DNA of 64,000 bases. It comes from Microcaldota archaeon. Lineage in GTDB: Archaea > Micrarchaeota > Micrarchaeia > Micrarchaeales > Micrarchaeaceae. The position numbers and the translations under genes were made by a program. Of this stretch, positions 1-41,762 are shown one piece after another (position 1 is the stretch's first letter; every line of letters starts with the position of its first letter). The DNA lies in contig JAJZAB010000001.1 in the NCBI GenBank assembly GCA_021799635.1, positions 94,505 to 158,504 on the forward strand. The letters run 5' to 3'. The notes under the pieces were generated by a model. The model worked only from the letters and a program-made list of their open reading frames with translations, was not told the DNA's origin and searched no databases.

Positions 1-2510
1 GTGCCGCTCTCCAGCCATGATGGTATTATGGTTCCGTTGGAGTAGAAGAACTCCACGTTGTCAAGGTTGGCTGCCTCGTAGCTGTTGTACGATATGGAGT
101 TTACAGCTAGCATCTGCTGGAAGGGAGATGGAGTTGGAGTGGTCTGGGAATTCGTCAGGGTGATGTTGACGTAGTATAATATATTGGAAGGCACTGTTAC
201 CCCAGAAGGATCTACCGCGGTGTAGTTTTTGTCCCCGGAAAAATCAAAAACAACGTTCGCGCTGATGTTGCGCGGTACTTTATAGTTGAACCTTAATTTT
301 ATTGCGTTTGCATCCTTTGTGGTATATGGCACAAGGAAGCTGCCGTTGGACAGCTGTATGTAGTAGCTGTAATTCCCGGAGTTGCCGCTTAGAAGCTTGG
401 ATGACATAGTCACGTTAATGTTATACCTTTGGTGTGGCCGCAGCAACGGAACTTTGACTACGGCAGCCTTTGATCCAGTTATTAGTGCCCCGTCCACATT
501 AAGCACAAGCCTTGGCTCCGCCTTTGTCACGTTTAGCTGCTGGGTTTCTTCTGCGCCTGTGTTGGCGTTGATCGCATTTACTGTATAGGAACCGATAGCG
601 CTTACCGGGAATTCATAGGAAGCGGTGCCTGCGCCGCTAGCCTCAAGCACCGAATTGACGAGCACCTCGCAGAGGTCTGTGGATGGAGTGCATGTAGAGG
701 TTATGTTTACACTTTGGCCATATGATATCTGATTTTGGCTTATTGCAAGGGACACGCCGCTGCTGGTGCTGTTGTACACCGCTGTGACTACCACGTTGCC
801 GTATACTGCAATGCTGGTGTTTTGTGACAGAACATTTGCTACGGTTGCGTTGAGTGAATTGCTTACCTGCCACATGATGAAAGTATATCCCGATGGGGCT
901 ATGGCGTTTATTGCTGAGGTGCCTATCGCCATAATCGAATTGCCGGACAGCTGGTATGACCCATCCGTATATATTTCGCCGCTTGATGGGCTGTCATTCA
1001 GTACAACGCTGTACGGTGAAAAGACGTATGCGGCTAGAGCCGTTGACCCCGGACCCGATGATGCGGTGCTTACGCTGTAGGTGCCGGCAGGTTGGTCCTG
1101 GCAGGCGGCAACGTACGCGGATTCAAAGGTGTCTGAGTTGTTTATAAACTGCTGTTTTGCGCAGCCGGAAGGAACGGTAACCCCGGTCAGATTGTAGTAC
1201 CCTGCGGCTGCCATTATTACAACAAACGAACCGTTTTCCAATACATTATAACTGAGTGCCGCGGAGTAAGCGCTGCTTGCGTTGTTTGAATACAACGAAT
1301 AATGCGTCTCGTTAAGCCCTATTCCTGCAACAGCCAGCCCTGGTGCCGCCGCACCAGCAGTTCTAGCTATGCACTTGTTTGTAGACTGGTGACCTATGCT
1401 TGCGTTGACACCCCCTTCCTCGGGTGCACCGGTTGGCGCAGCAGAATCCTGTGTCCAGCTAAACGGGGATGTTGAAGTTGAGAGTGTGTAGTTTGCGCCG
1501 GCTGCGCAGAGATATAGTTTGTAGCCTGCAGGCAGCACGACCTTTTCCGGGCTGGCGTCTCCTGCCGCAGCACCGGTGCTGAAAGAAACAACGTATGTTG
1601 AGAGCGAATTCGAAGCTGCCGAGTAGTAGTACATTCCAGAGCTGTTCCCTATGAGAGAGGTGGGCAGTGGGGTCCACGAGCCCCCGGTGAGCTTGTAGAG
1701 AGTAACCTGGTCCGGGCTTATGTTGTTCTCCATCACCCACGAATCTGGGACAGAGAAATTGTATTCAGCACTTGTCACGTTGGAATCCTGCAGCGTGCTG
1801 TTTATGCTGAACAGCGCATAGGCAGGGCTGCCGAGGCCTGGAACCGAAGGCTGTATTACCAAACTTATTCTTGTAATTATCGAATTTGCGCTCCCCGAAG
1901 CGCGCACAGTTATACCGGAAAGCGTGGAGTTCCTATCTAAAAATATCGGGACTCCTATCTTCCCAGGAATCGAAGGCGCGTATGAAACTGCGCCTGCGCC
2001 GGAAGCTGCCGAGTATATGTCAACGTATGATATGTTTGTGTACTGGGTTATGTTTGCTGCATAGATGCTTGCATCTGATGCGTTAAGCTTAGAGTTTGTG
2101 TATGCTATAGCAACGTTTTCGGCATAGACGCTTTGCTCCCCGCTGAACAGCGCCCCAAATGTACCAGGTAGGGTGGCTACGCTTGCAGTGCTATAGTTTA
2201 CTTCGGTAACCTCTATGGCGTTTCCGTGCCAGAATGATGACTTCTTTGACAGGTCATTGTGCACTTTGGCTCCGAGCGCGTTGTAGAGGTTCGAGGCTGT
2301 GCTGTTAGATCCTTCTGGCTGCGAATACGCGGTTGTGGTGGACTGGTTGCTTGTGGATGCGTTGCTCTGATTGCTGAAGGAAAACACAGCGCCGTACTGA
2401 ACTGCCACTCGAGGCATTGGGCTTGAAGTGGCCAGCAGCAGCATAGCTGCAGCAGCTATCGACAATGCAGCGATAATTTTAGCAATGTAAGCACATTTTC
2501 CCGAAAGCAT
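1..2510 (-). CDS. Large secreted surface protein, partial (runs off left edge), PGF-pre-PGF-like and DUF2341-like modules
   Basis: An open minus-strand frame starts at ATG 2510 and stays open to base 1, about 836 codons with the C-terminus missing. The ORF track omits it because no stop lies in the window. The N-terminus has a Lys-containing head and a hydrophobic stretch (IIAALSIAAAAMLLLA), consistent with a Sec signal peptide. Roughly 220-310 residues in, a segment reading NFSVPDSWVMENNISPDQV followed by LYKL..GSWTPLPT matches what I know of the PGF-pre-PGF domain of archaeal surface proteins. Ig-like beta-rich segments follow. The last visible part (PFQQM, EFFYSNGTIIPSWLES) is the start of a DUF2341-type module, the same module that repeats in the giant gene at the right edge. 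N-x-S/T sequons are very frequent, so the mature protein is probably heavily N-glycosylated. Envelope or adhesion role is inferred. Confidence 0.8.
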   Translation of the reverse strand, partial: MLSGKCAYIAKIIAALSIAAAAMLLLATSSPMPRVAVQYGAVFSFSNQSNASTSNQSTTTAYSQPEGSNSTASNLYNALGAKVHNDLSKKSSFWHGNAIEVTEVNYSTASVATLPGTFGALFSGEQSVYAENVAIAYTNSKLNASDASIYAANITQYTNISYVDIYSAASGAGAVSYAPSIPGKIGVPIFLDRNSTLSGITVRASGSANSIITRISLVIQPSVPGLGSPAYALFSINSTLQDSNVTSAEYNFSVPDSWVMENNISPDQVTLYKLTGGSWTPLPTSLIGNSSGMYYYSAASNSLSTYVVSFSTGAAAGDASPEKVVLPAGYKLYLCAAGANYTLSTSTSPFSWTQDSAAPTGAPEEGGVNASIGHQSTNKCIARTAGAAAPGLAVAGIGLNETHYSLYSNNASSAYSAALSYNVLENGSFVVIMAAAGYYNLTGVTVPSGCAKQQFINNSDTFESAYVAACQDQPAGTYSVSTASSGPGSTALAAYVFSPYSVVLNDSPSSGEIYTDGSYQLSGNSIMAIGTSAINAIAPSGYTFIMWQVSNSLNATVANVLSQNTSIAVYGNVVVTAVYNSTSSGVSLAISQNQISYGQSVNITSTCTPSTDLCEVLVNSVLEASGAGTASYEFPVSAIGSYTVNAINANTGAEETQQLNVTKAEPRLVLNVDGALITGSKAAVVKVPLLRPHQRYNINVTMSSKLLSGNSGNYSYYIQLSNGSFLVPYTTKDANAIKLRFNYKVPRNISANVVFDFSGDKNYTAVDPSGVTVPSNILYYVNITLTNSQTTPTPSPFQQMLAVNSISYNSYEAANLDNVEFFYSNGTIIPSWLESG

Positions 2511-39810: not shown

Positions 39811-39862
39811 TCATAACCCGTTTTGTTTTTATTTCATGCAGCTGTAGACTAACTGACATCCT

Positions 39863-39883
39863 CCCACGAATAAAATTCGTGGG
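39863..39883. repeat. Right-end hairpin of the IS200/IS605 element
   Basis: CCCACGAAT-AAA-ATTCGTGGG, perfect 9-bp stem with a three-base loop, directly next to TGACATCCTCC (the GGAGGATGTCA end motif on the minus strand). It would also be the 3' end of a guide (omega) RNA. Confidence 0.8.
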
Positions 39884-39910
39884 GTTCCTTTTGGTTCGGT
39901 GTCTCTGCGT

Positions 39911-40930
39911 TCATAGAGTTGCCCCTTGGGGCGTATCAGTGCTGCCCTTGCACACATCCCTGTCTGTATGCAATTGACTTCTGCCTTCTCCTATTGGAGG
40001 ACGCTGCGATATATTGAACGATGCATTTGCGTCAGCATGGTCTACGTGTCCACACGACTGGCACACGAATTTCTTTGAATCTCTAATTCCTTCATTTCCG
40101 CACCTTGAACAGTCCTTTGACGTGTTTTTAGGCTCCACGTAGGTTAGAGGTATTCCACATAATTTTGCCTTATATTCTATGAATGTCTGCAATTGGTAGA
40201 AAGACCAGCTATGCAGACTATAATTGAAGTTCCTTGAATGTTTCCTGTTCTTTCCTATTCCTTCCAATTTTTCAAGTTTGATTCCTACATTGTTTTCCTT
40301 TGCAGTTTCTACTATTGCCTTTGAGATGTTATGGTTGATGTTCTTGATTATCCTTGACTCCCTGTTCCTTATCCTCTTGACTACCCCATACTTCCCCTGT
40401 TTCTGCATCTTCTTTCTTATATTTCTGTATTTTGTGTGGATGTGCAGAGCCTCCTTTCCGAGTTTCAGAATCTTTCCTGTGTCTGGATTTCCGACTACTG
40501 CAATATGTCCTGTCGTGTTTCTGTCCACTCCTATCCATGTCTGTGGAACTATCTGTGGTTCTTCCTTTATATTGACCGACACATAAGCGTATTCGTTGTC
40601 CAGTTCTATCTGGTTTATTTTCTCATAGTCGTTCCTGAAGTTGTATGGAACTTTGAAACTGAGGCATGGGATTTCTATCGTTCTGTTTTCCTTGTCTGGA
40701 TTGATTGACTGGGAAGGAACTGTGAGTTTTATCCTAGTGACGTTCTTAATTGTCTCATTGTTTCCATACTTCCTGAGTATCTGATTTGCGATTGCAGATT
40801 TTAGACCGAATTGTTTCACATCCTTTGAAGACCTTGTTTTGTGGGTTAGAGCAAACTCAGCAATCTGCTTTGCCTTTCCTAACTCTGAGGAGAAGTCCCT
40901 GTTATGTCTTATCTTGAAGGTTAGAATCAT
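39911..40930 (-). CDS. tnpB: TnpB RNA-guided nuclease of IS200/IS605
   Basis: 339 residues from ATG 40930, which overlaps the stop of the membrane gene (ATGA). The longer track start at 41014 is inside that gene. RuvC-I Asp in WIGVDRNTTG near 140, RuvC-II Glu in IKLEKLEGIG near 220, zinc ribbon CSRCGN...CQSCGH near 285-300, RuvC-III Asp in DHADANASFN near 307. All catalytic residues are present, so it is predicted active as an omegaRNA-guided DNA nuclease that favours retention of the element. Confidence 0.92.
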   Translation of the reverse strand: MILTFKIRHNRDFSSELGKAKQIAEFALTHKTRSSKDVKQFGLKSAIANQILRKYGNNETIKNVTRIKLTVPSQSINPDKENRTIEIPCLSFKVPYNFRNDYEKINQIELDNEYAYVSVNIKEEPQIVPQTWIGVDRNTTGHIAVVGNPDTGKILKLGKEALHIHTKYRNIRKKMQKQGKYGVVKRIRNRESRIIKNINHNISKAIVETAKENNVGIKLEKLEGIGKNRKHSRNFNYSLHSWSFYQLQTFIEYKAKLCGIPLTYVEPKNTSKDCSRCGNEGIRDSKKFVCQSCGHVDHADANASFNISQRPPIGEGRSQLHTDRDVCKGSTDTPQGATL

Positions 40931-41157
40931 GCTGATTTCCTCTTTCTCTTTAGAATGAAATATGCACAGAGAATTGCAATTATTATGACTATGATAAATA
41001 TAACAATCCACCAAAAATTAGAAATCCCAAAATAACTCGGACTTGCTATCCAAGATGAAAGACTTTGAGCACATGGTTGTCCATTAGTTCCTATACAGGA
41101 ACCTCCTGGCTGGAAAGTCGAGGTATTGATAGGTGTTGCATTGGTTGATACGTTCAT
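40927..41157 (-). CDS. Single-pass membrane protein encoded inside the IS200/IS605 operon
   Basis: 76 residues. The first ~45 are hydrophilic and Thr/Ser/Asn-rich with sequons (NVS, NAT, NTS) and two cysteines (SCIGTNGQPC). A strong helix WWIVIFIIVIIIAILCAYFI and a basic tail LKRKRKSA follow, so the N-terminus should be outside. It starts at the ATGA overlapping the tnpA stop and ends at the ATGA overlapping the tnpB start. It is therefore translated as the middle gene of the transposition operon. No family recognised. Such a gene is not part of canonical IS200/IS605 elements. Confidence 0.75.
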   Translation of the reverse strand: MNVSTNATPINTSTFQPGGSCIGTNGQPCAQSLSSWIASPSYFGISNFWWIVIFIIVIIIAILCAYFILKRKRKSA

Positions 41158-41546
41158 ATCTTATCCCATTGTTGTTCTATATATTTCTTTATCGTTGAAG
41201 CACTTACGTTTCCTGCTGTTGAAAGGAAGTATGAACGTGTCCAGAGAGTAGGCATCTTGAGGAGTTCTGGAAATTCATTTCTTAAATATCTTGAACTTCT
41301 GCCTTTGAATCTCTTGACTACTATTTCTGGTCTTGACCTTACGTCAGCAGAAATGAAGAGATGAACATGGTCTGGCATTACTTCTCTTGAGATAATTTCC
41401 CATCCATTTTCAAGTGCTACATCAAACATGATTTCTTCAAGTCTTTTCTTTATGCCTCCTACCAATAACTTTCTCCTATATTTTGGACAGAATACAATGT
41501 GGTAGTTTACCATTGTTATACTTGTTTTGTTATGTTTGTATTCCAT
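41154..41546 (-). CDS. tnpA: TnpA Y1 (HUH) transposase of IS200/IS605
   Basis: 130 residues. HUH motif in MPDHVHLFISA near 58-68 and catalytic Tyr in STIKKYIEQQWD near the C-terminus. N-terminal YHIVFCPKYRRKLL is the classic IS200-type opening. It cuts and rejoins single-stranded DNA at the element's ends. Full length and intact; overlaps the passenger gene by ATGA. Confidence 0.95.
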   Translation of the reverse strand: MEYKHNKTSITMVNYHIVFCPKYRRKLLVGGIKKRLEEIMFDVALENGWEIISREVMPDHVHLFISADVRSRPEIVVKRFKGRSSRYLRNEFPELLKMPTLWTRSYFLSTAGNVSASTIKKYIEQQWDKI

Positions 41547-41623
41547 TTAATCATTAGATACTATATATCCCTTCTAATTTATATACATATGCTTCTATCA
41601 AATTACAATACATTCGCGTTCAT

Positions 41624-41644
41624 CCCACGATTGGAAATCGTGGG
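41624..41644. repeat. Left-end hairpin of the IS200/IS605 element
   Basis: CCCACGATT-GGA-AATCGTGGG, a perfect 9-bp stem similar but not identical to the right-end hairpin. The adjoining ATTCGCGTTCATCCC (41612-41626) recurs with one mismatch at 27721. Confidence 0.8.
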
Positions 41645-41762
41645 CTTTCTGCTATGGGCTTTGGTAAAATCAATATTATATTTTGTACTTATATACCTTA
41701 CTGCGGCTGCCTTTACATCAGTGCGCAGGCGCAGCGCAGGCTAAGGCCCATGCATTTACATC

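What the first reader, a model, noticed from the sequence alone, without database searches (positions are those of the whole stretch)
40927..41157. Membrane-protein passenger translationally coupled between tnpA and tnpB of an IS200/IS605 element
Seen: a 76-residue Nout/Cin single-pass protein begins at the ATGA overlapping the tnpA stop and ends at the ATGA overlapping the tnpB start, inside perfect subterminal hairpins. Known: IS200/IS605 elements normally carry only tnpA and/or tnpB. Inference: double coupling means the gene travels and is expressed with the transposition machinery, perhaps as a membrane-located regulator, a host-fitness passenger or a DNA-uptake/transfer aid.
Basis: partly seen in the sequence, partly recalled or inferred. 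Interest (0 to 1): 0.78.

Follow-up and report, generated by a model that had tools for sequence, protein, structure and literature searches.

The report
Swappable gene slot in archaeal transposon
A small "jumping gene" of tiny acid-mine archaea has, locked between its two transposition genes, a slot that holds a different small gene in different copies, so it probably ferries spare genes between species; the gene in this copy is one such passenger, of unknown function.

Summary
On the - strand tnpA (41546-41154), a 76-aa one-helix membrane protein X (41157-40927) and tnpB (40930-39911) are joined by two ATGA overlaps inside an about 1.81-kb IS200/IS605 element. It has perfect 9-bp subterminal hairpins and is absent from the same site in seven congeners. 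X itself was found nowhere else, but its slot is not a one-off. Elements with 75-96% identical TnpA in other Micrarchaeota carry unrelated genes at the same point: a two-helix four-cysteine protein (7 copies), a 54-aa soluble protein (4), a 153-aa exported protein (1), a PH-like protein (1), or nothing (6). A second TnpA subfamily carries another two-helix protein (3). The window element and its closest relative are 90-95% identical in both ends, tnpA and tnpB; their slots are 58% identical, the value for shuffled sequence, so the slot was exchanged as a cassette. Slot families with more than one copy show purifying selection, and three have chromosomal homologues with no tnpA beside them. Best reading: a translationally coupled, interchangeable passenger slot. 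The regulator and DNA-uptake ideas have no support. What X does is unknown. New variant of a known kind.

The parts
39854..41663 (-). whole IS200/IS605 element, about 1.81 kb; left end after (T)TTAC, right end ...GGATGTCA
   Evidence: ends conserved in about 20 related elements with diverging flanks; site empty in 7 congeners
41664..41669 (-). flank TTTTAC at the left end, presumed target site and, by analogy, TnpB target-adjacent motif
   Evidence: TTAC/TTTAC precedes the left end in most relatives; role inferred
41624..41644 (-). left subterminal hairpin, perfect 9-bp stem
41154..41546 (-). tnpA, Y1 HUH transposase, 130 aa
   Evidence: Y1_Tnp 9.5e-39; matches solved IS200/IS605 transposases 2ec2, 2f4f, ISHp608
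40927..41157 (-). X, slot gene of type C, 76-aa single-pass membrane protein, coupled by ATGA to tnpA and to tnpB
   Evidence: no homologue found
39911..40930 (-). tnpB, RNA-guided nuclease family, 339 aa
   Evidence: guided_TnpB 3.4e-50, Cas12f1-like TNB
39863..39883 (-). right subterminal hairpin, perfect 9-bp stem, in the region expected to give the TnpB guide-RNA scaffold
   Evidence: guide RNA inferred, no Rfam match above threshold

Best explanation
The region between tnpA and tnpB in a lineage of Micrarchaeota IS200/IS605 elements is an interchangeable passenger slot. Shown: in close relatives the slot holds one of five mutually unrelated small genes, or nothing, while both ends, tnpA and tnpB stay homologous. 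Shown: slot families with more than one copy are under purifying selection, and three families have chromosomal homologues with no tnpA beside them. Inferred: ribosomes that finish tnpA at UGA restart at the overlapping AUG of the slot gene and again at tnpB, so any gene in the slot is expressed with the transposition genes and moves with them. Inferred: existing cassettes are exchanged by recombination through the conserved tnpA and tnpB flanks, and new ones are captured from chromosomes. X is one such passenger, a small membrane protein probably facing outward; its benefit is not known, an envelope trait useful to the host being my first guess.
For: Same slot filled by types A, B, C, D, E or empty behind 75-96% identical TnpA. 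Window versus L036: left end 90, tnpA 94, slot 58 (shuffled mean 57.8), tnpB 92, right end 95% identity; L040 versus L042: tnpA 95, slot 35. At least 12 changes of slot type on the TnpA tree. dN/dS mostly 0.2-0.5 for type A, 0.04 for the one measurable type B pair, 0.05-0.21 for type E. Chromosomal homologues for A, D and E. Type B intact in a deleted 577-bp element, type E intact behind a decayed tnpA tail.
Against: X has no homologue, so selection on X and its source cannot be tested. No chromosomal source for type B. Coupling and expression not measured. Many inner branches of the TnpA tree are weak. L252 and L276 slot genes look degraded, so passengers are not always kept.
Confidence: 0.8

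Rival explanations
1. The slot proteins serve the element itself, for example as membrane-located regulators, partners of TnpA or TnpB, or helpers of DNA transfer.
For: Fixed position and tight coupling to both transposition genes; most slot families are membrane proteins.
Against: Families are unrelated, two are soluble, and six close elements have none while keeping tnpA and tnpB; A, D and E have chromosomal kin.
Confidence: 0.08
2. Slot genes act in conflict or retention, for example as toxins, exclusion proteins or defence and counter-defence factors that favour cells or replicons carrying the element.
For: Fast replacement between near-identical elements; small membrane proteins predominate.
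Against: No match to defence families for the five slot proteins tested apart from one weak JAB hit to type B, E 0.014; no antitoxin-like partner gene; homologues are chromosomal genes under purifying selection.
Confidence: 0.1
3. X alone is a chance open frame or a dead capture, though other slot genes are real.
For: No homologue of X anywhere searched; 76 codons is short.
Against: Exact ATGA overlaps at both ends as in other slot types; 1.5% of shuffles open, none of 876 with such a helix; positive tail after the helix.
Confidence: 0.06

Closest known systems
IS200/IS605 elements with tnpA and tnpB (IS608, ISDra2)
   Same: Y1 transposase, TnpB, subterminal hairpins, TTAC-like left flank, no inverted terminal repeats used, tnpA overlapping tnpB in many relatives
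   Different: a third, exchangeable gene between tnpA and tnpB
Insertion sequences with passenger genes (transporter IS, known for other IS families; general knowledge)
   Same: a non-transposition gene carried inside an IS
   Different: IS200/IS605 type; one fixed coupled slot refilled with unrelated genes
Integron gene cassettes (by analogy only)
   Same: interchangeable genes at one expressed position
   Different: no cassette recombinase or attC-like site seen; one gene at a time; mechanism of exchange unknown

Membership tests
IS200/IS605 family element | Y1 HUH transposase TnpA with HUH motif and catalytic tyrosine | tested here: met
   Y1_Tnp and NCBIfam match above cut-off; PDHVHLF and KKYIEQQ conserved
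IS200/IS605 family element | subterminal imperfect or perfect palindromes at both ends | tested here: met
   two perfect 9-bp hairpins, conserved position in relatives
IS200/IS605 family element | insertion 3' of a short fixed target, no target duplication | tested here: inconclusive
   TTAC/TTTAC flank in most relatives; empty site seen but too diverged for the exact junction
TnpB RNA-guided nuclease | RuvC/zinc-ribbon TnpB protein | tested here: met
   guided_TnpB 3.4e-50, TNB domain
TnpB RNA-guided nuclease | guide RNA from the right end and cleavage activity | not testable with these tools
   right end conserved; no RNA or activity data
IS with passenger gene | carried gene lies inside the element ends and is not needed for transposition | tested here: inconclusive
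   inside the ends; six relatives lack any slot gene, but activity was not measured
IS with passenger gene | carried gene derives from a host gene | tested here: inconclusive
   chromosomal homologues for types A, D, E; none for X or B

The most novel reading that the evidence does not exclude
Micrarchaeota IS200/IS605 elements form a gene-shuttle system: a fixed, translationally coupled slot repeatedly captures small host genes, swaps them between elements by recombination, carries them between families of these episymbiotic archaea, and leaves some behind intact when the element decays.
Probability: 0.45. Interest if true: 0.78.

Novelty: new variant of a known kind. Interest (0 to 1): 0.62.

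Why it matters
IS200/IS605 elements are treated as minimal one- or two-gene elements. A reusable, coupled third-gene slot would show that they can carry and exchange genes, give a concrete route for gene flow between DPANN archaea, and point to small selected proteins of unknown function. It also makes testable how genes enter an operon at an ATGA overlap.

Tried and rejected
Homologues of X by protein in its own genome, 295 genomes of the phylum and viral contigs: none beyond generic Ser/Thr-stalk-plus-helix matches. X as a truncated type A protein: hhalign probability 3.9 over 14 columns, rejected. Second two-helix type as kin of type A: probability 75, left open. Pfam, PHROG, NCBIfam and PADLOC for X and slot proteins: nothing convincing. 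Long tnpA-tnpB gaps outside Micrarchaeota: the four inspected were misread starts, a frameshifted tnpB or a nested IS; two more (L101, L119) were not resolved. L257 type E copy as an element relic: no signal. Type A in viral contigs: none. Type E fold resembles PH domains, but the best E-value is 0.055, so only a suggestion. My first gap count used profile starts and overstated gaps; it was redone.

Full report
What is there. On the - strand of about 39854-41663 lies an IS200/IS605 element of about 1.81 kb: tnpA (130 aa), X (76 aa), tnpB (339 aa), joined by two ATGA overlaps. TnpA matches Y1_Tnp and solved IS200/IS605 transposases and keeps PDHVHLF and the tyrosine in KKYIEQQ; TnpB matches the Cas12f/TnpB families. 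Both subterminal hairpins are perfect 9-bp stems. Comparison with about 20 relatives places the left end just after (T)TTAC and the right end at GGATGTCA, beyond which flanks diverge. In seven congeners the primase gene and the 793-aa membrane-protein gene that flank the element are neighbours with no element between them. They are too divergent to resolve the junction to the base.

X. It has a Ser/Thr-rich head with two cysteines, one very hydrophobic helix at about 40-73 and a KRKRK tail; AlphaFold without an alignment gives only that helix with confidence. No homologue was found in its own genome, 295 genomes of the phylum or viral contigs; weak hits are generic stalk-plus-helix anchors. 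Shuffles of the slot stay open in 1.5% of cases and none of 876 open shuffles had such a helix. X is probably a real gene, but selection on X itself cannot be tested.

The slot. The informative result came from relatives. In close elements (TnpA 75-96% identical), all in Micrarchaeota genomes, the same position holds: type A, a roughly 79-aa two-helix protein with a cysteine-rich loop (CxCPA...CC or CxC), seven copies; type B, a 54-aa soluble protein, four; type D, a 153-aa protein with an N-terminal signal or anchor, one; type E, a 121-aa soluble protein with a PH-like predicted fold, one; type C, window X, one; and nothing in six, where tnpA overlaps tnpB directly. In a second Micrarchaeota TnpA subfamily (about 49% identical) three elements carry another two-helix protein and at least five carry none. 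Of 125 tnpA-tnpB pairs from bacteria, archaea and viral contigs, 103 are 60 nt or less apart; four longer gaps outside Micrarchaeota were inspected and proved to be misread starts, a frameshift or a nested IS, and two were left unresolved. The sample is centred on TnpAs like this one, so slots in remote IS605 lineages could have been missed.

Exchange. The window element and L036, whose genome (G103) belongs to another archaeal family of the same order, are 90, 94, 92 and 95% identical in left end, tnpA, tnpB and right end, but their slots are 58% identical, as for shuffled sequence (57.8). L040 and L042 are 95% identical in tnpA with slots at 35%. On the TnpA tree slot type changes at least 12 times where 6 is the minimum, though many inner branches are weak. 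Type B occurs before two different TnpB subfamilies. In L036 the 3' junction carries a tandem ATGATTCT, a possible trace of insertion.

Selection and fate. dN/dS of type A is mostly 0.2-0.5, of type B 0.04 in the one pair that can be measured well, of type E 0.05-0.21. L251 is a 577-bp deleted element with both ends, most of tnpA and tnpB lost, but an intact type B gene. In L255/L256 an intact type E gene follows a decayed tnpA tail (alignment score 70, best of 500 shuffles 36 and 42). Counter-examples: the slot genes of L252 and L276 look degraded. Types A, D and E have chromosomal homologues with no tnpA beside them.

How it works. Shown: the overlaps, the exchange of slot contents, purifying selection on families with more than one copy. 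Inferred: termination-reinitiation coupling, capture from chromosomes, exchange by recombination through tnpA and tnpB, spread between archaeal families with the element. Unknown: what X does. Because unrelated genes and empty slots occur in otherwise intact close relatives, a regulator or DNA-uptake role specific to X is unlikely.

Comparison with what is known. The element meets the IS200/IS605 criteria that could be tested. Passenger genes in insertion sequences are known for other IS families (general knowledge, not looked up). Searches of the held papers for passenger, cargo or accessory genes in IS605/TnpB elements and for IS605 in Micrarchaeota found no description of such a slot. The library lacks most subscription journals, so novelty is likely but not proven. 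I rate it a new variant of a known kind.

Noticed in passing
L251 about 1245-1822 (- strand): A 577-bp deleted element keeps both ends and an intact type B gene while tnpA and tnpB are mostly gone: a MITE-like carrier of one passenger.
   Followed up: partly
L255 and L256, 1360-1872: Intact type E gene behind a decayed tnpA tail; about 1400-2450 is 93-100% identical between the two genomes while flanks are 80-92%, suggesting a recent recombination tract.
   Followed up: partly
L235 1468-1960: A chromosomal type A homologue lies just upstream of the left end of a TnpB-only element, a layout that could precede capture.
   Followed up: no
L036, end of the slot gene: Tandem ATGATTCT-ATGATTCT at the slot-tnpB junction, possible scar of cassette insertion.
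   Followed up: no
L268/L271/L272 (G098 contig 3): Tandem paralogues of the type D exported protein family on a chromosome.
   Followed up: no
L126: One IS200/IS605 element appears nested inside the tnpB start of another.
   Followed up: no
window genome G000:C1:51625-52011: A second, distant IS200-type TnpA (27% identity) elsewhere in the same genome.
   Followed up: no
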